DNA from: Mycolicibacterium goodii
Lineage (GTDB): Bacteria > Actinomycetota > Actinomycetes > Mycobacteriales > Mycobacteriaceae
Direction: 5' to 3'
Assembly (NCBI RefSeq): GCF_022370755.2
Contig: NZ_CP092364.2
Coordinates: 2,108,001-2,172,000, forward strand
Length of the DNA stretch: 64,000 bases
Below are positions 1 through 56,514 of the stretch, in pieces. A program made the position numbers and the translations under genes. A model generated the notes under the pieces. It made no database searches. It was given only the letters and a program-made list of their open reading frames with translations, and was not told the origin of the DNA. How positions within the stretch are numbered: position 1 is the first letter of the stretch; each line of letters starts with the position of its first letter.

Positions 1-3000
1 GGACATCGCGCGGCCCGGGCGGGGTCGGGGGAGTGAGCAGCGTCGGAGTGGTGAACCCGTCCAGCACCTCGCACCAGGCCGCGTGTGCGGCCTTCTGATC
101 CTGGGCGGCCAGCCAGTCGATGTAGGTGCGGTACGACCCGGCAGGAGGTAGACGATGTTCGAAGTAGGCGCCGAACAGCTCTTCCAGCAGGACCGGAAGG
201 GACCAGCCGTCGATCACGATGTGATGGAAGGTCATCACGAACCGGTGCCGGTTGCCGGCGGTGCGGATGAGCGCCGCACGGAACGTCGGCCGCGCGGACA
301 GGTCGCACACCGCGGCCCGCTCCGCCGCGCACACCTTTTCGATTTCCGCTTCGGGGGGCCGGTCGTCCTCGCGCAGGTCCATGTATCGCCAAGCCATGAC
401 CGGGTGGGCCGGTATCACCTGCACCGGGGTGCCGAACTGTCCGCAGAAACGCGCGACGAGGTTGGGATGACGCCGCAGCACGGTGTCGAGTGCGTCGTAC
501 AGCCGGTCGGCGTCGAGCACGCCGGTGACGGTGATGTCGAGCTGCATCGAGTACACGTCGGTCGGCGCATCACCCGGCCCGACCATGGAGTGGAAGAACA
601 GACCCTGCTGTAGCGGGGTGAGCGGCAGGATGTCGACGATACGGTGCTGCTCGGCGAGCTCGTCGATCTGCTGCTGGGTGAGTCGTGCGGGTGCGATATC
701 GGACGGAGAGAGCCCGCCGCCTCCCCGCCGCACGTGCGCACAGATGCCGCGCAGGGCGTCGAACCACAACTCGCTCAACCGTTTCACCTGCGCTTCGTCC
801 ACGCTGGACGGCGCCCAGGTCCACGCTGCCCGCAGTGCCGGTCCCGGCCGGTCGGCCTGCGGGCCGAATTCCATGGTGCCGGCGTTGAGTTCCACCGTGT
901 GCATCAACGGCATGGGGACCGCCGAGACCGCGTCGGCCAACCCCAACCCGTCGGGGGCTACCCGCCACAGTCCCTGTGACGGGTGGTCGGCACCGAGCCG
1001 TCCCAGATAGTTGAAGCCGATGGTGGGTTCCGGGCCGCGCAGATCCACCTCGGGGTTGAGGTAGCGCAGCATTCCGTAGGACGTCTCGTCGGGGAGGTTG
1101 CGCAGCTGCTCCTTGGCCGCCTTGATCACCGTGCCGAGTTCGGCCGCACCGTCGCGGACGAGGTCCCACGCAAGGACGCCCAGGGTGAGCGCGACGGGGT
1201 ACTTCGTGGTGAACCAGCCCACGGTGCGGGAAAGGTCGAGGTCCTCCCCGATGCGCTCGCCGAGCTGTTCGGCCCGTCCGTGGCCCTCGACATCGATCGC
1301 GAGCGGGGCCCCGCCGTTGCGGAGAAACTCGTTCCACGCCAATGCGTATGCGATGAGCATGATGTCGCCGACCCCGGCGTGAAACGCATTGGGCACCTCA
1401 CCGAGCAGCTGACGGGTGGTCTCGGTGTCCAGTGAGATCGTCAGGTGCCCGGCACACGCGTAGGTGTCCACCGCCGGTTTCACCGCCGGCATCCCGCGCG
1501 GGGTGGCAAGCACCCGCTGCCAGGCGTCCGCGTGGGCGACGACGTCCGGAGTGCACGCTTGTGCCTGCAACAGTGCGGACCAGCGGGCGAACGACGTCCC
1601 CTCGGAGGGGAGCACCACCGGTCGATCGGAGCGACGTTGGCCCCACGCGATGTTGCAGTCCTCCACCAGGATCCGCCATGACACCCCGTCCACCGCGAGA
1701 TGATGGATCACCAGGGCCAACTGGCGGGTGCGGGGCGCCCACAACGCCGAAAGCATGCGGCCGGCAGCCGGATCGAGCCGCGAACGTGCCGCGGAGAGCG
1801 CCTCTGCGGACAAGGTGTCGACCGTCCGGACGCAATCGGCTGCGCGCACGGCGCCGGGCTCCAGCACCGGCAGCGATGGACCGTCGCCGGGCACCTGGAG
1901 CCGCAAGGTGGGGTGGTGATCCAACAGCGCCTGGACCACGCCCACCACGTCGGTGATCTGGGGACCGGCCGCATCCTCGGGAGCCTGTAACACCAGCGTC
2001 TGGTTGAACTGATCGACCGGACCGTCCACGGTTCGCAGCCAGTGCATGATCGGGGTGGGCGTCACCGGGGCAGTGCCGTCGTCGGTGTCGTCGTGCCCGC
2101 CGGCGACCGTCGCGACGGCCGCCAACCGGGCCACGGTCTGCTCGACGAACACGTCGCGTGGCCTGATCCGGATGCCCCGCATGCGTGCCTGGGCGACGGC
2201 CTGCATCGACAGGATGCTGTCACCACCCAGGGCGAAGAACGAATCGTCGACACCGACTTGCTCGACGCCGAGAACGTGGGCGTAGATCTCGACCAGGATC
2301 CTCTCGGTATCGGTGGTCGGTGCCCGGAAAGCACCTGCGTCGCCCCGGTATTCCGGTGCGGGCAACGCGCGTTTGTCGAGTTTCCCGTTGACGGTCAACG
2401 GGAAGGAATCGAGGACCACGATCGCGGCGGGAACCATGTACGCCGGGAGGCGCTCGGCCAGAGTGCGACGTGCCGCGGCCGGGTCGAGCATGCCGGTGAC
2501 GTAACCGACCAGCCGCTTGTCACCAGGTCGGTCCTCGCGCGCGATCACGACGGCCTGATCCACACCGTCGAGGCGGGACAGCGCGGACTGGATCTCGCCC
2601 AACTCGATGCGGTACCCGCGGATCTTCACCTGCTCGTCGCTGCGACCCAGGTACACCAGCTGACCGTCGCCGTCCCACCGCACGAGATCGCCCGTGCGGT
2701 ACATCCGCTGCCCTGGCGGCCCGAAAGGGCAGGCCACGAACCGCGACGCGGTCAAGCCGGAGCGGCGGGCGTATCCGACGGCGACTCCCGCACCGGCGAG
2801 GTACAACTCGCCGACCACACCATCGGCGACCGGTCTCAGGAATCGGTCGAGGACGAACGTCGCAGCATGGGGGACCGGCCGTCCGATCGGCACCGCCTCG
2901 GCGTCCGGCGACAGCGGTGCGCTGATCGCGGCGTAGACCGTGGCCTCGGTCGGGCCGTAGGCGTTGAGCATCACGCGCCCGGGAGCCCAACGCTGCACAA

Positions 3001-3922
3001 GATCTGCCGGGCAGGCCTCGCCGGCCACGACCAGCGCGGTCGCATCCAGACCTTCCCGCGGGAGCATTCCCGCGGCCGACGGGGTCTGGCACAGGACGGT
3101 GACCCGCTCGCGGACCAGCAGGGCGTTGAGGTCATGCGGCGAACTCGCCACCGCTTCGGGCACCACCACGAGCCGCCCACCGTGCAGCAGGGCGCCCCAC
3201 ATCTCCCACACCGAGACGTCGAACACCAGGGAGTGCCACTGTGACCACACCTGTCCGGGGCCGGCAGGCAGCGCCGGATGGAGACAGCTCACCAACTGGG
3301 TGACGTTGCGATGGGTCACCGCCACGGCCTTGGGCACGCCGGTGGTGCCGGACGTGTACGTCAGATACGCGAGATCGTCAGCCGCGGGCGACCGGAGACC
3401 AGCGAACTCATCGATCCGCTTGAGGTCGGGGCTGTCGATGTCGAGCACCGTGCGGCCGGTCGGGTCCAGGCGTGCGCGATGCGCTCCCGAGGTCACCACA
3501 GCCACGGGATCGGCGTCGGACACCATGAACCGCAGCCGCTCATCCGGATGAGCCGGATCCATCGGCAGGTACGCAGCTCCCGATTTGAGCACCGCGAGGA
3601 TCGCGATGACCGCTTCGGCCGAGCGTGACAGCAACAGCCCGACACATCTGCCCGGCCCGGACCCGTTGCCGGTCAGGCACTTCGCCAGGCGTTCGGCGGC
3701 GTCGTCGAGTTGGCGGTAGGTATAGGTGCGCGCGCCGCACACGAGTGCGACCGCGTCCGGCGTTCTGGAGACCTGAGCGGTGAACAGGTCCGGGATGGTG
3801 GTGTGCGGTGGCCCCGGATCGGCCAGCGCCGATCGGTTACCCCAGTCATCGAGTTTGTCGTATTCGTCGTCGTCGAGCAGATCTATGGTCAACAACCGTC
3901 GTGTCGGGTCACCACCACCCAT
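1..3922 (-). CDS. Non-ribosomal peptide synthetase, A-T-E-C, 3' end outside window
   Basis: The 1307 codons inside the window stay open to the edge. The adenylation domain (about residues 45-520) shows [10 protein letters not shown] near residue 186 and [13 protein letters not shown] near 430. The carrier domain has LGGDSIL with the phosphopantetheine Ser at 569. Next comes an epimerisation domain with HHLAVDG (His740/741), and then, from about 1095, a condensation domain with HHIVIDG (His1233/1234). This is a GrsA-like initiation unit that activates one residue, makes the D-form and hands it on. A hand alignment to GrsA gives a specificity code near D-V-W-C-V-A-A-V-Y-K; it shares D, W and the AA pair with Phe codes, but I cannot name the substrate. 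The ATG at 3922 has a GGGGTGAG element just upstream. The first residues, [12 protein letters not shown], are the usual C-to-A linker, although no upstream C domain remains. Product unknown. Confidence 0.93.
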
Positions 3923-4301: not shown

Positions 4302-4961
4302 TCAATTCTTCACGGTCTTTGACGTCAGGAAATACATTTCTTTTCCGGTCGGGTATCCACCACCATTGGTGGCAATGTGCACGTGATCGAAATGGTTGGC
4401 GGTTTCGTTGCCGTAATCGGCGGTCCAACTCGGTGCGCCGATGCCGGGATAGAAACCCTGCCGCCAGATCACGTGCAGAACACCCCAGCGTTCGGCGTTG
4501 GCCAACGCGAACCCGGCGATCTGGTTGCCCAGTTGGATGCCCTTCTCGGACTGGTGGTCGGGGATCATCACGTCGATCGCCAACCCGTTGGGGTGCCATT
4601 TCAGCGGATCCTGGCGATGGCCGCCGATGGTCTTGATCTCGGGGAACATCACGCTGATGGCACGTGCCGTCCAGACCGTGTTGACCTGTAGCCCGGCCTC
4701 GGGCGCGACGCCCGGTGGCAGCGAGAACTGGAAATCGCGCGCGGCCACGGGTGCGCTGGCGGCCAGCAACTCGGCGGGGGCGGCAGCGGGGACCCCCGCA
4801 GCAGGCGGCTGGTCCGGCTGCGAGGCTGCCGGGGTATCCGCGCAGCACGACGTTTCGCCGCCCTGGGCGTGGAACATTGCGGCCGCGACGATGATCGAGG
4901 CCCCGAACGCCAACCACCGACCACGGCCATCCGCCAACCGGTTACCACCCACGGCCAGCAA
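4302..4961 (-). CDS. Exported M15/VldE-like metal-site protein
   Basis: 219 residues. A hydrophobic segment at about 18-31 looks like a signal sequence or membrane anchor. It is followed by a Pro/Ala-rich linker (about 40-75) and a C-terminal domain with WHPNGLAIDV (His123, Asp130) and NHFDHVHIA (His190, His193, His195). That spacing of His, Asp and HxH resembles the ARB_07466/VldE C-terminal domain and M15-type zinc peptidases, so a cell-wall role is possible but inferred. The long reading begins with TTG at 4961; GTG at 4952 is an alternative, and neither has a clear ribosome-binding site. The gene lies upstream of, and in the same direction as, the NRPS, with 379 bases between them, so cotranscription is uncertain. 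Confidence 0.75.
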   Translation of the reverse strand: MLAVGGNRLADGRGRWLAFGASIIVAAAMFHAQGGETSCCADTPAASQPDQPPAAGVPAAAPAELLAASAPVAARDFQFSLPPGVAPEAGLQVNTVWTARAISVMFPEIKTIGGHRQDPLKWHPNGLAIDVMIPDHQSEKGIQLGNQIAGFALANAERWGVLHVIWRQGFYPGIGAPSWTADYGNETANHFDHVHIATNGGGYPTGKEMYFLTSKTVKN

Positions 4962-5053
4962 TCTACTGTGGCAGCGTTCCGAAAGGGTGCTCTTCGCCTG
5001 TGTTCCCAGGGCGAACTTCGCCGGGGCTGCACCAGGGCCGTATCCGGGCTATC

Positions 5054-5500
5054 TCAACGGCAGCAGGTCGCGACCATCTCTATGTACGCGGCCGCGATGC
5101 CCGACATCCTGAACTCGGCTTCCAGATCGGTTCCCGGCGTCAGCCCGTCCGAGTGCAGGTCGAGCACGGCGGCGCGCCAGGCGCGCGGCACGGAGCGGCC
5201 CCTGGACATGACGAGGGCGGACCGGGCCTCGTCCGGCAACTCGCGCCACCACCTGTCTAGGCGCAGTCGCTCGTCTTCGAGCAGGTTGGCTTCCGCCGAG
5301 CGCAGTTGCCACAGGCGCGACTCCTGTGGCTTCTCGTCCCGGTAGCTGCGCACCGTGTGCGAGGCGATCGCGGCGGCCACGCCGTCGGGCAGATACCCAT
5401 GCGGATTGGCGAGCAGATCCGCCTGCATCCGGCGGTCGAGTCGGTAGAACCAGGCCAGCGGTGAGTGTTTGCTCGTCGGCCGGTATCGACGATGGTGCAT
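5054..5500 (-). CDS. Hypothetical protein, Arg-rich, 148 residues
   Basis: I do not recognise this family. The ATG at 5500 is chosen because GGAGG stands nine bases before it; a longer reading from 5605 has no such site and an unlikely Cys/Arg-rich start. The protein begins MHHRRYRPTSK, is rich in Arg, Trp and acidic residues (RLDRWWRELPDEARSAL), and has no signal peptide or membrane segment, so it is probably cytosolic and helical. It is divergent from the subtilase gene, with about 445 bases between the starts. Confidence 0.6.
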   Translation of the reverse strand: MHHRRYRPTSKHSPLAWFYRLDRRMQADLLANPHGYLPDGVAAAIASHTVRSYRDEKPQESRLWQLRSAEANLLEDERLRLDRWWRELPDEARSALVMSRGRSVPRAWRAAVLDLHSDGLTPGTDLEAEFRMSGIAAAYIEMVATCCR

Positions 5501-5946
5501 GTGGTGACGCCTCCAAACGCTGCCGGCAACGCGGCATGGATCGACGAGAACGCGCAGGCAACCGGTACGGAAGCAGGGATGCGGTGGAATTCCCGAGGGT
5601 GTCACCGATCCGGTGGTGGATCGGTGGAATGGGGTCCAGCCTACCTGATCGCTCGGATGTCCGATCTTTTCCGCCCGTGGTCACTGCTTCAGCAGCCGAC
5701 GCTCATCGAAAACTGCTGCGATGCCGCGGATCCCAATCGCTGTCCGCAGTCGCACCGACCAACCTGACGGTGGAATTCGTCTCGTAGCGCACGTCGACCC
5801 GCTGACATGGGACGGCCGGCTACTTGAATCCGCGTAGTGACCCAGACGGTACGAGGCGGGAAATGAAGTAGTGCGCTACCCGTGACCCCCGGTGGGCCCG
5901 GTGCGGATGCTGAATACGCACGATCGTCTGGCACAGGAGGTTTACG
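5501..5946. other. Divergent intergenic region before the protease/nuclease pair
   Basis: Short open frames exist on both strands, but none has a ribosome-binding site or a sensible protein composition. I read it as the regulatory region between 5054-5500 (minus) and 5947-7173 (plus). The only clear element is AGGAGG at 5935-5940, which sets the GTG start of the subtilase. Confidence 0.5.
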
Positions 5947-7173
5947 GTGACCGTTGTAATGCCAAGTGGCACAGTCAATCAGAAGACCATCATCCTGCGC
6001 ACACCGGGACGGCGGGTGACACGAGACCCGTTCGACGGGCCGGGATCGGCCCCGTTCGAGGCCGCGGAAGCCGCCGCCAACGCCCGTGTCGAGTTCGACG
6101 ACAAGCTGGACAGCAACGGTCTGCGCGCCGTTCTCGATGACCCCACGGTGCTCGCCTTCGCCCCGGCCATGCCGATGACGCTCATCGAACCCGTGGAGTC
6201 CTCGCAAGACGTCACCGAGGCCGGGGCGGCCACATGGGGTGTGGATGCGGTCGGCGCGACGAGTTCATCGTTCACCGGATCCGGCGTGACGGTCGCGGTA
6301 CTCGACACCGGTATCGACGTCTCGCACCCGGCGTTCGACGCCGTGGACCTGACGGCCAAGGACTTCACCGGATCCGGCAGCGCCGACGACACCCACGGAC
6401 ACGGCACACATTGCGCCGGAACAATATTCGGTCGTCAGGTGGACGGGATGCGGATCGGGGTCGCCACCGGGGTGACCAAGGCGCTGATCGGCAAGGTGCT
6501 CGGCGGGCCCGGCGGGGGCGGCAGCGACACGCTGTGTGAGGCGATCATGTGGGCAGCCGACAACGGCGCCAACGTCATCTCCATGTCACTGGGTATGGAC
6601 TTCCCGGGTTGGGTCAACACACTGGTCGACACGCGCAATCTCAGCATCCCGGTCGCCACCTCGATCGCCCTGGAACAGTACCGGGCGAACATCCGGTTGT
6701 TCGAGCAGTTGTCGAACCTGCTGGGCGCAAGGGCGGCCGTGGCCCAGACGGTCCTCGTCGCCGCCGCGTCGGGTAATGAGAGCGGCCGCAACGCCACACC
6801 TCCGTTCGTCATCAACGTGGCCCCGCCGGCCGCGTCGGCGGGCATCGTCTCCGTCGGTGCGCTGGGGCAGACGCCGGACGGCCTGCGGATCGCGCCGTTC
6901 TCGAACACCCGGGCAACCGTCGCGGCCCCCGGCGTCAAGGTGACGAGCGCGAAGGCCGGTGGTGGAACCACCGCGATGAGTGGCACCAGTATGGCCACAC
7001 CCCATGTGGCCGGTGTGGCCGCGCTGTGGGCCGAGAAGCTCGCGGCGCAGGGTTTGCTGAATCCGATTGTTCTGCAGGCCAGGCTGGTTGGTTCGGCCAC
7101 TCTCAACCCCCTGGTGTCGGGCACAGACCCGCTCGACGTGGGAGCGGGTTTGGTGCAGGCGCCGGCGGTGTGA
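5947..7173 (+). CDS. Subtilisin-like serine protease (S8) without signal peptide
   Basis: 408 residues. The catalytic triad is visible: Asp120 in VAVLDTGID, His152 in HGHGTHCAG and Ser348 in GTSMATPHVAG, with the oxyanion Asn277 in AAASGNE. About 100 residues precede the catalytic core and may act as an inhibitory I9-like prodomain. No Sec or Tat signal and no membrane anchor are present, unlike the mycosins (MycP) of type VII secretion, so a cytosolic role is likely. The GTG start has AGGAGG at 5935-5940. The next gene starts 26 bases after the stop with its own strong ribosome-binding site, so the two are probably cotranscribed. Its substrate is unknown; the adjacent protease-nuclease is the obvious candidate. 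Confidence 0.93.
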   Translation: MTVVMPSGTVNQKTIILRTPGRRVTRDPFDGPGSAPFEAAEAAANARVEFDDKLDSNGLRAVLDDPTVLAFAPAMPMTLIEPVESSQDVTEAGAATWGVDAVGATSSSFTGSGVTVAVLDTGIDVSHPAFDAVDLTAKDFTGSGSADDTHGHGTHCAGTIFGRQVDGMRIGVATGVTKALIGKVLGGPGGGGSDTLCEAIMWAADNGANVISMSLGMDFPGWVNTLVDTRNLSIPVATSIALEQYRANIRLFEQLSNLLGARAAVAQTVLVAAASGNESGRNATPPFVINVAPPAASAGIVSVGALGQTPDGLRIAPFSNTRATVAAPGVKVTSAKAGGGTTAMSGTSMATPHVAGVAALWAEKLAAQGLLNPIVLQARLVGSATLNPLVSGTDPLDVGAGLVQAPAV

Positions 7174-7199
7174 CACGTCCTCGAAGGCAGGAGGCAGCC

Positions 7200-9173
7200 A
7201 TGGGCGACGTACTCGAGAAGCTCCGTGGGCGAAATCGGCAGATCCAGCGCCGCGACAGCGTGCTGTCGGCCGAACTGGCGCGGGCACGTGATGCGGTCAC
7301 CGTCGACGTGGGCGCCGGTCCCATGATCTTGCCGAGCCGCGACGGTGATTCGATCGACATCGAAGAGGAGTCGATCATCATGCGCACAGGTCGCCCGGTA
7401 CTGGCGATTCTGCGCAACGAGACACAACTGCGGATCGATGACCCCGACAGTGAGGTGTGGACGAAGCGGCTGACAAAAGTCAAGGCGCACTTGATATCTG
7501 CGGCTGAAGCGGTCGGCCGCATCGAGGTCGACGGTCACAGCATGTCCTGGCTCGGCACCGGCTGGCTCATCGCGCCCGACGTCATCGTGACCAATCGGCA
7601 CGTGGCCGCCGAGTTCGGCAGGCAGGTCGGCACCGAATTCGTGTTCCGGCGTGGACTGGAAGGTGCGGACATGACCGCATCCATCGATTTCCTGGAAGAG
7701 ATCGATCGTCCCGACGAGTGGTCCTTCCGCCTCGAGCGCATCCTGCACATCGAGGATGCCGGTGGACCCGACATCGCTTTCTGCCGCGTGGCACGCACCG
7801 GCGGGGACCGGCTCCCGAACCCGATCATGGTGGCGCCCGTCACCGACGAGGCCGAACTGGTGGCCGTGATCGGTTACCCGGCCCGTGACAGTCGCATACC
7901 GGAGCAGCCGTTGATGGACCGCATCTACGGCGACGTCTACGACAAGAAACGCCTGGCGCCAGGCCAACTCACCGGATCGGCCCACGACGTGATCCGTCAC
8001 GATTGCTCGACGCTGGGCGGCAACTCCGGCTCGGTGGTGCTGTCACTGGACACCGGTGAGGCGGTCGGTCTGCATTACGCGGGCCGGTTCCTGCAGGCGA
8101 ACTTCGCGGTTCGCGGCTCGGTCGTCGCCCGGCGCCTGGAGCACGTGCTGCACGGCACGCCGGTCGCCGTTGCCGGCCCCCGCAACCCGGAAACGGCACG
8201 CCCCGCACAACTCACCTATGTGGTCCCCATCCGGATCACCGTGGAGGTGGACGGTATGCCGCAGCCCGACCAGGCCCCGCCCACGGACGACGCGATCGCG
8301 AACCACGGTGCCGGCGCGGACACCGATGAGGTCTTCACCGCGGCAGTGGCCGCCGACTACGCCGATCGGGAGGGCTATGCGGACAACTTCCTGGGCGACG
8401 GACCGGTGATACCACTGCCCGAGGCCGTCGGGGGCGCCGACGACGTACTGCAGTTCCCCGACAACGGGGGAACGAGCCACGTGCTGCGGTACGAGCACTT
8501 CTCGGTCGTGATGAGCCGCCGCCGCAGACTCTGCCGGTTCAGCGCGGTGAATATCGACGGCGCCACGTCGGTCTCCCGACGCCGGACGTCGTGGCGGACC
8601 GATCCACGCATTCCGGCGACGGCCCAGATCAGCAGGGAATGCTACGGCGACCCGCCGAAGTTCTCGCGCGGGCACATGACACGACGCGAAGACCCGGTCT
8701 GGGGCAGCGATCAGGCCGCGGAACGCGGCAACACCGACTCCATGCACGTCACCAACGCCGTGCCGCAGATGCAGCCCTTCAACGGTGGTGTGTGGCTGGA
8801 CCTGGAGAACTACGCGCTGCAGAACGCGCGCCGCGACGACATGCGGATCTCGGTGTTCACCGGACCGTTCCTGTTCGACGACGATCCGGTGATGTTCGAC
8901 GTCAAGGTGCCCGTGGAGTTTTGGAAGGTGATCGCGTTCATCCACGACGACACGGGCCGGTTGTGCGCCACGGGTTACACGATGTCGCAGCGCGACTTCC
9001 TCGGCGACGAGGAATTCGTGTTCGGTCAACACGAGACGACGCAGACCTCGATCGCCTCGATAGAACAGCGATCGGGGCTGTCCTTCGGCGAGTTGTCGGC
9101 GCACGACCCGCTCGACGAAATCGAACTCGCCACGCTGTCACTCACCGATGTGCGGCAGATCCGGTTCGTGTGA
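7200..9173 (+). CDS. Trypsin-like protease fused to DNA/RNA non-specific endonuclease
   Basis: 657 residues in two catalytic halves. Residues about 100-315 form a V8/trypsin-like serine protease: His134 in TNRHVAAE, Asp191 in GPDIAFCRV and Ser276 in GGNSGSVV. Residues about 425-620 match the NucA/EndA family: SRGHMTRREDPVWG with His492 as the general base, then Asn519, Asn528 and Glu536 in TNAVPQMQPFN...LDLE, the usual metal-binding region. A linker of about 100 acidic residues separates them. No signal peptide is visible. The ATG at 7200 follows AGGAGG (7189-7194); the frame extends upstream, but that part overlaps the subtilase. Such a fusion could be a nuclease held inactive until proteolysis; that is inference. 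Confidence 0.92.
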   Translation: MGDVLEKLRGRNRQIQRRDSVLSAELARARDAVTVDVGAGPMILPSRDGDSIDIEEESIIMRTGRPVLAILRNETQLRIDDPDSEVWTKRLTKVKAHLISAAEAVGRIEVDGHSMSWLGTGWLIAPDVIVTNRHVAAEFGRQVGTEFVFRRGLEGADMTASIDFLEEIDRPDEWSFRLERILHIEDAGGPDIAFCRVARTGGDRLPNPIMVAPVTDEAELVAVIGYPARDSRIPEQPLMDRIYGDVYDKKRLAPGQLTGSAHDVIRHDCSTLGGNSGSVVLSLDTGEAVGLHYAGRFLQANFAVRGSVVARRLEHVLHGTPVAVAGPRNPETARPAQLTYVVPIRITVEVDGMPQPDQAPPTDDAIANHGAGADTDEVFTAAVAADYADREGYADNFLGDGPVIPLPEAVGGADDVLQFPDNGGTSHVLRYEHFSVVMSRRRRLCRFSAVNIDGATSVSRRRTSWRTDPRIPATAQISRECYGDPPKFSRGHMTRREDPVWGSDQAAERGNTDSMHVTNAVPQMQPFNGGVWLDLENYALQNARRDDMRISVFTGPFLFDDDPVMFDVKVPVEFWKVIAFIHDDTGRLCATGYTMSQRDFLGDEEFVFGQHETTQTSIASIEQRSGLSFGELSAHDPLDEIELATLSLTDVRQIRFV

Positions 9174-9237
9174 CACCGGTTGACATCGAGTAGTACTACG
9201 CATCCGGGCAACCCGGGGCACCGGGGAGACTGGAGCC

Positions 9238-32927: not shown

Positions 32928-34388
32928 TCACGGGAGGCCGTTGCTGCGTCGGATCGCCTCACGGCACTCGCGGCGCGTCATCCCGGTCTGCTGCATGCAG
33001 ACCCGTACGGGGGACTCCTCGGCGAACGGCAGCGGTTCGTCGGTCGCGGCGGCCGTGACCGTCGGGCTCGGAACGGTTCCCTGTGTGAGGGACCAGATCG
33101 ACGCTCCCGTGGTCTGCAGCGTCGAGCAGTAGGCCGTCGTGCCGTCGGAGGTCGTCGCGGTGGCGCCCACCGGTGTGCACGACGCACCGATCACCGCTGC
33201 CGGCGCTGCGGTGGTTGTCGTTGGGCGAGTTGGCGCTACACCCGTCGCATCGGAGGTGGCGGCCTCGGTCGCGGTATCGGTGACGGTGACCGTATCGGTC
33301 ACCTCCGGTGGCGGCGGTGGTGCCGGGGCGGTGGTGGTCACCGGGGCCGTGCGGGTGGTCGTCGCGGTCGATCCCGCCATCGGCCGCTCGTCATCGGCGC
33401 GTCGAATCTCGACGGCCGCAACGATGATCGCCGCCACCAGCAGTACTCCGAGGACAGCGGCGATCCGCGCGGCCGTCCTCGGGCGCTTGTTCGCGTGGGT
33501 GGCGACCGGTGCGATGCGGGTGGCGTCCGGATCCGCGGCGGCGGCCTCGGTCTCAAGACGATGGCGTAACGCCCGGGCGAAATCGGCGCAGCGGGCGAAG
33601 CGATCCTTGGGATCCTTCGCCAGCGCCTTGGTGAACACCGGATCGAGCGAGGCGAGATCGGGCCGGTGCGCGCCCACCGGGGGCGGGTTCGCGGACAGGT
33701 GCTGACTGATCACCACGGCGGGATTGGAATGCTCGAACGGCGTGCGCCCCGTGAGCAGTTGATAGGCGGACGCGGCGAGCGCGTACTGATCGGCCCGCCC
33801 GTCCAGCTGGTTTCCCAGCAACTGTTCAGGCGCCGCGTAAGACACCGTGCCCACCGTCACGTTGGTGGCGGTCAGGCCGCTGGCCTCGCTCGCGTAGCGC
33901 GCAATACCGAAGTCGGCCAGCATGATCCGCTGATCGTCGGTGCCTGGATGCGCGAGCAGGATGTTGGCCGGCTTGACGTCGCGGTGCAACAGGTCGCGCT
34001 GGTGGGCGTAGTCGAGTGCGTTGGCCACCGCCGTCACGATCTCGCACACCTGGTGCGGGGGCATGCCGCCACCGAACTGCGCTTTCAGCAGCTTGGCCGC
34101 GTCGGTGCCGTCGACGTAGTCCATCGTTATCCACAGTTGCCCGTCGTGTTCTCCGCGGTCGTGGATCTCGACGATGTGCGGATGCCACAGAGCGGCGGCG
34201 ATGTCGGCCTCACGGTTAAAGCGTTCGCGGTACTCGGAATCGGCGGAGATCGACGCGGGCAGCACCTTGAGCGCATCCTGCCGGGGCAACCGGGGGTGCG
34301 CGGCGAGGTACACCTCACCCATACCCCCGGACCCGAGCAGGCGGATGATGGTGTAGCCGGCGAATGTCGCACCAGCGGCCAACGGCAT
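32928..34388 (-). CDS. Membrane Ser/Thr protein kinase (PknF-like)
   Basis: 486 residues. The kinase domain has the Gly loop [10 protein letters not shown] (18-27), Lys41, HRDVKPAN (135-142) and DFG (159-161), followed by [11 protein letters not shown] in the activation region. A membrane helix lies at about 308-327, then a Thr/Pro-rich extracellular linker and a small Cys-containing ectodomain ([28 protein letters not shown]). The layout is that of mycobacterial PknF/PknH-type receptors, with no PASTA repeats. The ligand is unknown. The upstream ferredoxin reductase gene ends 23 bases before its start. Confidence 0.93.
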
Positions 34389-34411
34389 GGGCCGAATGGT
34401 ACCGCCGCAGA

Positions 34412-35536
34412 TCAGAGCTCGAGGGTCAGACGCTGACCGTCCCCGCCGCGTGACACGCACGTGAGCAGATACCCCGCGGCGCGTTCGGGTTCGGTGAGCA
34501 GCGTGTCGCGGTGCTGCACCTCGCCTTCCCCTGATGTCCCGCCTTCGACCCGTGTCACCCGGACCCGGCAGGTCCCGCAGAACCCCTGCTGACACGAGTA
34601 CGGTGCGGTCACCCCGGCCCGGTTGAGCGCCGCGAGCAGCGTCTCGTCGGCACCGACGGAGACGGTCGCACCCGTCGACGCGATCGACACCGAGAACTCG
34701 GTGCCGTCGACCACCGGCGGCGCCGCGAACCGCTCGAAGTGCAGTTCGACGTCGTCGCGGCCGACCAGGGCCGACCGGATCGTGGTGAGCATCGGCGCCG
34801 GTCCGCACGCGTAGACCGTGGTGCCGCCGGCGCACGGGCCGAGCAGATCCGATGCGCTGGGCAGACCCTTTTGATCGTCGGTCCTGATGTGGATCCGGTC
34901 GCCGTGCCGTTCGAGTTCCTCCAGGAACGGCAGGCTGTCACGGTGCCGTCCGGCGTAGACCATCGACCAGTCGACGCCGAGCCGCTCCGCGAGGTCGAGC
35001 ATCGGCAGGATCGGCGTGATCCCGATGCCGCCCGCGACGAACCGCAACCGCTGTGCGGGCGACCCGTAGCCGGGGACGGTGAGAGGGAACGCGTTTCGCG
35101 GACCGTGCGTGGTGAGCAGGGTACCGACCCGCACGGTGTCGTGGACCTCGATGGATCCGCCACCGCCGTCGGGGATGCGGCGCACCGCGATGCGATAGGT
35201 CTCGGCGTGCGGATCACCGCACAGCGAGTACTGCCGGATACGGCCGCTCGCCAGGTGCAGGTCGATGTGCGCGCCCGGGTACCAGCGCGGCAGTGCCTTG
35301 CCGTCGGCGGCCGCCAGAGTCAGCGCGATGACGTCCTGATCGTGCGCGACCACTTGGCGATCGACGACCCGCAACGCGATCGTGCGGTCGGTGGCCGGTG
35401 GCGGAACCGGCCTGCGGACGTAGCGCGTCACGCCCCACATGGTCTTGATGGCGACGTGCGCCATCGCCAGCATCGGGTCGTGCCGGAACCGCCCGTTGGT
35501 GCTCGGCGGCAGCTGCCGCAACCGCGACACGATCAC
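34412..35536 (-). CDS. Ferredoxin-NAD(P)H reductase with C-terminal 2Fe-2S domain
   Basis: 374 residues. An FAD domain (RQYSLCGD) and an NAD(P) domain ([18 protein letters not shown]) are followed by a plant-type ferredoxin domain with CQQGFCGTC and a distal Cys in LLTCVS, a complete 2Fe-2S ligand set. It transfers NAD(P)H electrons to an oxygenase or desaturase partner. The GTG start at 35536 overlaps the TGA of the PF10118 gene (GTGA), so the diiron-type protein is the likely partner. The organisation resembles DesA3/Rv3230c-like pairs, but the partner belongs to another family. Confidence 0.92.
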
Positions 35537-54552: not shown

Positions 54553-56514
54553 TCAGGACCGTTCTGAGACCGCGGTGAACTCCCACCGCCCGGCGCCGAG
54601 CAGCGCCAGCTGCCGGTCGTGATGTCGGTTGACGCTGTCGCGATGGCTCACCGATACCACGATGCTCATCGGAAGCCGTTGACGCAGTATGGAATACAGC
54701 GCGAACTCCTGGCCGGCGTCGAGTGCCGAGGTGGCCTCGTCCAGGAAGACCGCACGGGGTCGGGCGAGCAGTATGCGCGCGAACGCCACGCGTTGCTGCT
54801 CGCCGGGGGAGAGCACCTTCGCCCAATCCGCCACCGTGTCCAACTGCGAACCCAGATGGCCCAGCGTCACCGCGTCGAGCGCGGCGCGGATCGTCTTGTC
54901 GTCGAACGCATCAGGCGGCGACGGATAGCACACGACGCCGCGCAGATCGCCCAGCGGGGCATAGGGCAACTGCGACAGGAACATCACGCTGTGCTGCTCG
55001 GTGGCTGTGTCAGCGCCGGTGCCCGTGGCGGGCCCGTCGCTGCCGCCCGGAAACCGCACCGTCCCGGTGCTGTACGGCCACAGCTGCGCCAGGCTGCGCA
55101 GCATGGTCGTCTTACCGGTGCCCGACGGACCCGTGATCACCAGCCAGTCACCCGGCGCCAACCTCAGGTCCAGGTTGTCCAGCAGTACATCGCCCGACGG
55201 TGAGCGCACCTCGACGGCCTCGAGTTCGACACCGCCGTCGGTGCTGCGCCGCGCCTGCAGACGCGGTAGCGCCCTTGCCTGTTCGTTCGCGGTGACCAAC
55301 CCGTCGAGCCGGATGATCGCGGCACGGTACCCCGCGAACGCGTCGTACACCGCACGGAAGAAGCTCAGCGAACTCTGCACCCTGGAGAACGCACTCGACG
55401 ACTGCGTGACGTCGCCGAGTTGCAGTTCACCGGCGAACAGCCGCGGCGCCTGCACGATCAGCGGAAGCGGTTCGATGATCTGGCTGATCGAACGGTTCCA
55501 GCCCAAGAACGCCACGCCGCGCAACACGAGCCTTCGGTAATTCGCGATGATCCGCGCGAAACGGGTTGCCAGTGTGGCACGTTCGGTGCGTTCGCCGCGG
55601 TAGAAACTCACGGCCTCGGCGGCGTCGCGAACCCGCACGAGCGCGTACCGGAACGCGGCGTTGGTCAACTCGTTGCGAAAGGTCAACCGGATGATCGGCC
55701 TGCCGATCCAGAACGCGACGACCGTGGTGGCGCCCACCCAGATCAATGCGATCCAGAACAGGGCCTTGGGCACCGTCACCCCCAGGATCGTCAGCGGCCC
55801 GGCGAGATTCCACAAAATGGGCGTGAACGCGACAACCGAGATGACGGCGTACACCGAGCCGAAGAGCAGGGTCTGCGACGTCGCCACCGTCGGTGTGTTG
55901 GTCTCGGGTCCGGTACCCGTGGTGAAGATGTCGATGTCCTGCTGGATGCGCTGATCCGGGTTGTCGACCGGTTCACCGTCGAACGCCTCGAGGAACCTGC
56001 CGCGATAGTAGGCACGATCGTCGAGCCAGTCGCCGGTGAGACGGTCGGTGAGCCACACCCGCCAGCGAATGATGAAGTACTGCATGAGATACAGGTCGAG
56101 CAGAGTGCGCGTGATATCGGCCGCGACGAGCAGTCCGAAGATCAGGATCGACTTCCAGAACCCGGCGATCCCGGAATCGCGGACGGCGTCGTCGCCCGCG
56201 CCGGCACCCTCGAAGGCCACCTGCAGCGCGGTCGCCTGATCGTTGGCGTAGTAGCTGAACAACACGTCCATGCGCACCGACACCAGGACCGACAGCAGCA
56301 GCACGCCCAGCAGCGCCCACACCGGGACGCTCTGGCGTCCAACGAAATAGCTTCCGCTGACGTGCCAGAACTGCCTGCCCCAGCCGGTATGGCGCGCGAT
56401 CAGCGCGAGCACCACCAGCAAGACGGCGGCGCTGATCGCCCACCCTTTGGCCACCCAGATCAGCGACGCCAGGATTTCGTTGCCCCAGTCGAGTGACTGG
56501 GTGAACACCTCCAT
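54553..56514 (-). CDS. BacA-family ABC transporter, paralogue
   Basis: 653 residues. N-terminal SbmA/BacA-like membrane domain (about 1-340), with [16 protein letters not shown], then an ATPase domain with [10 protein letters not shown] (Walker A), [10 protein letters not shown] (signature) and [10 protein letters not shown] (Walker B). Related to Rv1819c (BacA), a broad importer of hydrophilic compounds including cobalamin. It follows the closer Rv1819c-like copy by 22 bases, so the two form an operon and probably arose by duplication. Confidence 0.92.

What the first reader, a model, noticed from the sequence alone, without database searches (positions are those of the whole stretch)
5947..9173. 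Two-gene cytosolic protease cascade: subtilase next to a trypsin-nuclease fusion
A leaderless S8 protease is paired with a protein carrying both an S1 protease and an EndA/NucA-type nuclease, each with its catalytic residues intact. A nuclease joined to a protease and placed behind a second protease suggests stepwise proteolytic activation, as in a suicide or anti-phage system. I know of no described mycobacterial system of this make-up.
Basis: partly seen in the sequence, partly recalled or inferred. Interest (0 to 1): 0.8.

Follow-up and report, generated by a model that had tools for sequence, protein, structure and literature searches.

The report
Subtilase beside a trypsin-nuclease fusion
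A mycobacterium carries a small inserted two-gene cassette, a protease next to a protease-nuclease fusion, that belongs to an already predicted class of bacterial self-destruct or immune systems; it is a real, compact example, not a new kind.

Summary
Gene 1 (5947-7173) is a leaderless subtilase; gene 2 (ATG at 7200, to 9173) fuses a trypsin-like domain to an Endonuclease_NS (NucA/EXOG-type) domain. Catalytic residues are present. The fusion is patchy (10 of 198 genomes sampled in the genus), and the pair lies in a ~4.25-kb insert absent from the same site in one relative. Some relatives sit beside other peptidases, STAND-like ATPases, CHAT, caspase or TIR genes; many show no such partner.

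The claim that no such system is described is wrong. Kaur et al. 2020 predicted the class ('System 3': trypsin + NucA, sometimes S8, a proteolytic cascade). Caulobacter LypC has the same fusion architecture; there the peptidase is needed for lysis, the nuclease active site is not.

Best reading: a minimal actinobacterial member of the NucA-trypsin conflict systems, with the subtilase as partner or activator protease. Cleavage of the fusion, a trigger and phage defence are untested. This subtilase subfamily is seen near a fusion only once more, as a fragment at a contig edge; other S8 subfamilies recur near fusions. New member of a known kind; interest about 0.4.

The parts
5947..7173 (+). Leaderless subtilase (S8), 408 aa; residues 1-110 precede the catalytic domain and look like an I9-type prodomain (inferred, no Pfam match)
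7200..9173 (+). Trypsin-like peptidase + NucA/EXOG-type endonuclease (Endonuclease_NS) fusion, 657 aa
7554..8072 (+). Trypsin_2 domain (residues 119-291), H134, D191, S276
8160..8369 (+). Pro/Ala-rich interdomain linker (about residues 321-390) with the motif VPIRITV; model confidence below 50 here
8466..9089 (+). Endonuclease_NS domain (residues 423-630), H492, N528, E536, SRGH motif, no large insertion against the Pfam profile or Serratia nuclease
5935..5940 (+). AGGAGG, likely ribosome-binding site of gene 1
   Evidence: sequence
7189..7194 (+). AGGAGG, likely ribosome-binding site of gene 2; 26 nt from gene 1 stop to gene 2 start, so probably one transcript (inferred)
   Evidence: sequence
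4972..9223 (.). Segment without counterpart at the corresponding site in relative G020 (L111), where the left flanking gene and the acyltransferase lie about 0.1 kb apart; borders approximate
5054..5605 (-). Orphan gene inside the insert (true start probably further in); relatives are not tied to the fusion

Best explanation
The locus is a minimal two-gene member of the NucA-trypsin conflict systems, probably an abortive-infection or regulated cell-death cassette. Proposed working: both proteins are made in the cytosol and held inactive (the subtilase by its N-terminal prodomain, the fusion by keeping nuclease and protease tethered). On an infection or stress cue the subtilase becomes active and cuts the exposed linker of the fusion, or prompts the fusion's own trypsin domain to do so. 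The freed EXOG-like nuclease, and perhaps the freed trypsin domain, then destroys nucleic acid or protein of cell and phage. Shown: the two genes, intact active sites, no sign of leaders, tight gene spacing, patchy insertion, and the domain make-up of a predicted conflict-system class. Inferred: zymogen state, order of cleavage, trigger, and defence role.
For: Domain make-up equals the core of 'System 3' of Kaur et al. 2020, for which a proteolytic cascade deploying NucA was predicted. Patchy: 10 of 198 genomes of the genus, own included; 14 of 394 in the class by profile, own included, several hits covering one domain only. The insert has no counterpart at the collinear site in G020; G021 has there a 423-codon open frame that neither gene matches. 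Neighbours of relatives: EAD5-trypsin and an AAA_16/STAND-like ATPase (L021), EAD5-ankyrin (L020), MoxR + SAV_2336 (L052), CHAT + caspase + TIR + S8 (L050), trypsin + AAA_16 ATPase (L060, L061). Relatives of the window subtilase sit beside CHAT (61%, 47%, 38%) or in a caspase/TIR cluster (54%). S8 genes lie directly upstream of the fusion in L050 and L058, with an 80-aa gene between, and face it in L030 and L034. PADLOC models 'subtilase' (1.1e-17) and 'nacht' (4.8e-18, on the trypsin part) match the two proteins. No STAND, MoxR or caspase family is among the 25 of 48 Pfam families printed for 38 other window proteins, so the two genes could act alone.
Against: No sensor gene or oligomerisation domain was found. 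No defence island in the window. Many fusions show no partner: in the hand-assigned table, 14 of 39 loci have no peptidase or STAND-like partner within about 3 kb that my reference set or the annotation shows, 3 are ATPase operons, and 7 are too close to a contig edge to tell. The fusion-adjacent S8 genes of L050/L058 are only 31-33% identical to the window's. The window subtilase's nearest relative (70%, G083) sits beside alpha/beta-hydrolase genes, not a fusion. LypC's nuclease active site was not needed for lysis. The gating loops that define HamM-type pro-nucleases were not seen. The structure models could not test autoinhibition: the fusion model has mean pLDDT 57.7 with residues 322-528 below 50, the subtilase model 31.5.
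Confidence: 0.5

Rival explanations
1. LypC-like: the trypsin domain is the business end, cutting cell targets or releasing another lytic effector; the nuclease is auxiliary or only stabilises the protein.
For: In Caulobacter LypC, S296A abolishes lysis but H471A and N505A, alone or together, do not, and one homologue lacks the nuclease. In L061 the nuclease positions are lost (S and G instead of H and N) while the trypsin triad is kept.
Against: The nuclease H/N/E positions are kept in 28 of 29 aligned fusions, L061 being the exception, and the (S/A)RGHMTRREDP motif is the same in all 11 sequences of the close alignment across four phylum-level groups, so the nuclease is under strong constraint.
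Confidence: 0.2
2. The two genes are only neighbours: the fusion works alone by self-cleavage, and the subtilase belongs to other (CHAT/caspase-type) circuits or to protein turnover.
For: A subtilase was seen within 10 kb in only 8 of 39 fusion loci. A 70% identical subtilase in G083 sits beside alpha/beta-hydrolase genes, far from that genome's fusion. Two close fusion relatives have M4 (L026) or M36/M28 (L018) neighbours instead.
Against: 26-nt spacing in one direction; S8 genes near fusions exceed the background: about 0.4 expected within 10 kb of 21 loci in 20 genomes, 4 seen at 3 loci (hand arithmetic; two of those loci are close kin).
Confidence: 0.2
3. A toxin or degradative enzyme pair that leaves the cell by a leaderless route (for example type VII secretion) and acts on competitors or nutrients.
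For: Subtilase, trypsin, nuclease, Tle1-type lipase and astacin neighbours would suit extracellular attack; some relatives lie among metabolic genes (L058, L059).
Against: No leader; no immunity gene recognised; some relatives linked to STAND-like, EAD5, MoxR, CHAT and caspase genes. Type VII signals were not tested.
Confidence: 0.1

Closest known systems
NucA-trypsin conflict systems, 'System 3' (Kaur et al. 2020, PMC7159879)
   Same: Trypsin-like peptidase plus NucA/Endonuclease_NS domain, fused or in one operon; an S8 peptidase added in some; proteolytic cascade proposed (section 32 read).
   Different: Described as mostly alphaproteobacterial, with S8 mentioned in the same polypeptide; here actinobacterial, S8 as its own gene, and no EAD1, Death-like or STAND part found.
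LypC of the LypABC CARD-NLR-like system, Caulobacter (Banks et al. 2026, PMC13236601)
   Same: LypC has an N-terminal trypsin domain, flexible linker and C-terminal endonuclease ending at residue 662 (section 9 read).
   Different: No LypA/LypB-like genes were found beside the pair and a subtilase is present; LypC's sequence itself was not available to compare.
Gated MBL-nuclease/trypsin pairs and Canu (Tuck et al. 2025, PMC12799240)
   Same: A protease activates a nuclease in phage defence (Results read).
   Different: Different nuclease fold (MBL), separate genes, gating loops; the paper's main text has no hit for subtilisin, subtilase or Endonuclease_NS.

Membership tests
NucA-trypsin conflict system (System 3) | NucA (Endonuclease_NS) domain | tested here: met
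   PF01223 4.1e-41, H/N/E conserved
NucA-trypsin conflict system (System 3) | Trypsin-like peptidase fused to it or in the same operon | tested here: met
   PF13365 2.6e-14 in the same protein, triad conserved
NucA-trypsin conflict system (System 3) | Optional parts: S8 domain, EAD1, bDLD2-STAND, TM segments | tested here: inconclusive
   S8 present as a separate gene; no EAD1, STAND or hydrophobic segment found in the two proteins; these parts are optional in the definition
NucA-trypsin conflict system (System 3) | Proteolytic cascade deploys the nuclease | not testable with these tools
   A prediction also in the source paper; needs biochemistry
CARD-NLR system (LypABC type) | CARD-trypsin(-ATPase) gene and NLR-like ATPase gene beside the effector | tested here: not met
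   Immediate neighbours are an acyltransferase and two genes without a match over a family's cut-off; no STAND family among the 25 of 48 families printed for 38 window proteins
CARD-NLR system (LypABC type) | LypC-like trypsin-endonuclease effector | tested here: met
Gated MBL pro-nuclease/protease pair | MBL-fold nuclease as separate gene with gating insertions | tested here: not met
   Endonuclease_NS, fused; profile positions 12-217 matched by 208 residues, no large insertion
Secreted nutrient-degrading protease/nuclease locus | Leader peptides | tested here: not met
   No hydrophobic N-terminus by hydropathy, not by a signal-peptide program; export by other routes not tested

The most novel reading that the evidence does not exclude
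The trypsin-nuclease fusion is a plug-in death effector whose activating protease is interchangeable: peptidases of unrelated families (S8 here, M4 in L026 and, beside a separate nuclease gene, in L085, M36/M28 in L018, astacin/M12 in L033 and L051, other trypsins elsewhere) take the same place, and in the window a subtilase alone replaces the whole CARD-NLR sensing arm, giving a sensor-free two-gene immune cascade in mycobacteria.
Probability: 0.2. Interest if true: 0.65.

Novelty: new member of a known kind. Interest (0 to 1): 0.4.

Why it matters
It brings a predicted but little-tested class of bacterial cell-death systems down to two adjacent genes, which makes the central prediction, that one protease switches on a protease-nuclease fusion, simple to test. 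If the activator really is interchangeable, it would show how bacterial death effectors are rewired much as caspase cascades are.

Tried and rejected
Considered and rejected: (1) Secreted nutrient locus: no leader, and no relative opened lies in an evident nutrient-degradation cluster, though two lie among transport and metabolic genes. (2) Membership in CARD-NLR or gated MBL systems: defining parts not found. (3) Orphan gene 5054-5605 as a third partner: tblastn in the loci then held found only the window's own copies; 14 of 196 genomes match, own included, four others at 50-59% identity, none of these at a fusion locus. (4) Phage carriage: no match among 50,697 phage records; in viral contigs 15 and 150 pattern matches, none confirmed. 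(5) Linker as a proven cleavage site: a VPIRITV-type pattern is found in 19 of 39 fusions; it is commoner where a second peptidase lies nearby (12 of 15 against 3 of 17, seven edge loci dropped, Fisher p 0.001; p 0.00003 and 0.003 under two other groupings), but neighbour classes were assigned by hand, the rows are related by descent, fusions without a seen partner (L029, L081, L083) also have it, and linker length did not differ significantly (p 0.059). A lead only. (6) Defence island: of 35 PADLOC families matched among 38 window proteins (37 of the 55 other genes my caller gave, plus one), 32 fall on one protein kinase-like protein at 32928-34835 and 2 on the protein at 54553-56514; the protein matching the remaining one (PDC-S40) was not located. 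(7) Structure: the subtilase model, made from one sequence, is useless (pLDDT 31.5); the fusion model is usable for the trypsin part only.

Rows dropped: the 39-row table leaves out L082 (no nuclease gene called), L062 (fusion broken across frames), L085-L087 (no fused gene called) and duplicate records H2-H4 and H8. Of 97 plasmid records with a match, 30 were listed and 11 opened (H1, H5, H6, H7, H9-H15); of 76 for the subtilase, 30 were listed and 2 opened as such (H31, H32).

Papers: Kaur 2020: section 32 read, other passages found. Banks 2026: outline, section 9, passages. Tuck 2025: outline, Results, passages. Death/TRADD-N 2021 (PMC8195603): passages only. The original CARD-NLR phage paper was not read; it is known to me only through Banks 2026. 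No test of an S8 + trypsin-NucA pair was seen in the listings.
Full report
What is there. Gene 1 (5947-7173, +) encodes a 408-aa subtilase (Peptidase_S8, E 9.3e-38) with D120, H152, S348 and N277. Gene 2 begins most likely at the ATG at 7200, 26 nt after the gene 1 stop and behind a good ribosome-binding site; it encodes 657 aa with Trypsin_2 (119-291) and Endonuclease_NS (423-630). In 11 aligned sequences, the window and 10 relatives from four phylum-level groups, H134, D191, S276, H492, N528 and E536 are invariant. In a wider alignment of 29 fusions the trypsin triad is present in 29 and the nuclease H, N and E in 28; the exception is L061. The SRGH signature is shared with human EXOG. Neither protein has a hydrophobic leader. 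The two best solved matches of gene 1 are intracellular subtilisins, with extracellular ones close behind. The trypsin part resembles V8- and HtrA-type proteases in the model and, by recalled chymotrypsin numbering, lacks the Asp189 that gives trypsin its Arg/Lys preference, so its specificity is probably not tryptic (inference).

How it got there. The genus is Mycobacterium: G162, in the window's genus, holds a 50,217-base contig with the same match as a record titled Mycobacterium sp.. In relative G020 the counterpart of the gene at 4302-4961 and the acyltransferase gene lie about 0.1 kb apart, and window 4972-9223 has no counterpart; in G021 a 423-codon open frame, matched by neither gene, occupies the same place. 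So the pair, with an orphan gene, is an insert at a variable spot. No tRNA gene was found in the window, and the repeat scan showed no clear border repeat.

How common it is. Fusion relatives: 10 of 198 genomes in the genus at E <= 1e-3, own included; three others are close (52-67% identity), the rest distant. 10 of 396 in the phylum at 1e-30, own included, six of them in frames of about 270-310 aa with the nuclease only. 14 of 394 in the class by profile at 1e-60, own included, several covering one domain only. The one genome-contig scan found 10 loci in actinobacterial, Bacteroidota, Acidobacteria-type and deltaproteobacterial records. Plasmids: 97 of 72,556 records match, 14 over at least 80% of the query. 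Phages: 0 of 50,697. The subtilase: 5 of 396 genomes in the genus at 1e-25 and 3 of 201 in the family sample at 1e-30, own included in each.

What it travels with. Among 39 fusions tabulated, a subtilase was seen within 10 kb in 8: the window, L017 (only its last 34 aligned residues, 73% identical, at a contig edge), L030, L034, L050, L055, L058 and L061. By hand arithmetic (114 subtilase matches, a few of them pieces of one gene, in about 129 Mb of 20 genomes), about 0.4 would be expected within 10 kb of 21 fusion loci; 4 were seen at 3 loci, two of which are close kin, so the enrichment in actinobacteria is modest. Other neighbours are M4 (L026), M36 + M28 (L018), astacin/M12 (L033, L051), further trypsins (L017, L020, L021, L051-L053, L060-L062), AAA_16/STAND-like ATPases (L021, L060, L061, L062), EAD5 domains (L020, L021), Tle1-type lipases (L030, L034), MoxR and SAV_2336 (L052), and CHAT, caspase and TIR (L050; caspase also L051). 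The M4 of L026 and M36 of L018 also lack a hydrophobic start; the others were not measured. Against this, of the 39 rows 14 were classed as showing no peptidase or STAND-like partner within about 3 kb, 3 as ATPase operons, 15 as having a second peptidase, and 7 as contig edges (classes by hand). The Pfam families printed for the window's own surroundings are mostly metabolic, transport and secretion families (25 of 48 printed).

The subtilase's own kin. Relatives sit beside CHAT proteins (L036 61%, L050 47%, L055 38%) and in a caspase/TIR cluster (L056 54%). One at 54% in Nonomuraea (L057, unannotated) has no CHAT neighbour by my reference set, only a trypsin-like frame about 4 kb away. The nearest, 70% in G083, lies beside alpha/beta-hydrolase genes, far from that genome's fusion. 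The S8 genes directly upstream of the fusion in L050 and L058 are a different subfamily (31-33%). The pair therefore looks like a combination of two conflict-system parts, not a fixed unit.

What is already known. Kaur et al. 2020 define this class: NucA plus trypsin, fused or in an operon, S8 in some, probably activated by a proteolytic cascade; 45 organisms in their table. Banks et al. 2026 studied LypC, of the same architecture, within LypABC: peptidase needed, nuclease residues not. Tuck et al. 2025 showed protease activation for a different, MBL-fold nuclease held shut by inserted loops; such loops were not seen here, so any control must lie in the linker or in the tethering (inference).

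Mechanism. I favour a two-step death cassette: subtilase activated from a prodomain-bound state, cut of the Pro/Ala-rich linker, release of the nuclease. Shown are the parts, active-site residues, spacing, insertion and kinship; every step of activation is inferred. The LypC result is the strongest point against giving the nuclease the leading part. The linker motif is a lead, not proof.

Verdict. Observation confirmed; interpretation partly supported; new member of a known, mostly predicted, kind.

Noticed in passing
L050:2797-16103 (Agrobacterium Ti plasmid record): One stretch holds a caspase gene, two TIR genes, a CHAT gene, two S8 subtilases of different subfamilies and the trypsin-nuclease fusion.
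   Followed up: partly
L050:13538-13780 and L058:11523-11765: An 80-aa gene lies between S8 and fusion in both (no Pfam match for the L058 copy); by eye it looks like a free-standing subtilase prodomain or inhibitor.
   Followed up: partly
window 8160-8369; linkers of L016-L020, L026, L027, L029, L030, L034, L050-L053, L058, L081, L083, L089: A short strand-like motif (IPLTVTV-type) floats in otherwise variable Pro/Ala-rich linkers, in 19 of 39 fusions.
   Followed up: partly
L061:11785-13761: Paracoccus plasmid fusion in an S8-trypsin-ATPase gene row keeps the trypsin triad but has lost the nuclease active-site residues.
   Followed up: no
L085:4474-14082: M4 protease, two trypsins and a STAND-like ATPase next to a separate nuclease frame: an unfused actinobacterial version.
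   Followed up: partly
L125:7851-11095: A subtilase 70% identical to the window's lies between two alpha/beta-hydrolase-type genes (the second by weak matches), perhaps another effector pairing.
   Followed up: partly
window 5054-5605 (-): Orphan gene within the insert, with scattered relatives in the genus (14 of 196 genomes, own included).
   Followed up: partly
window 2-3922 (-): Part of a non-ribosomal peptide synthetase gene (AMP-binding, carrier and condensation domains).
   Followed up: no
L053:6150-22694: Around the fusion on a Bradyrhizobium plasmid lie a phospholipase D-like gene, an S1/P1 nuclease gene and dpd DNA-modification genes (annotation).
   Followed up: no
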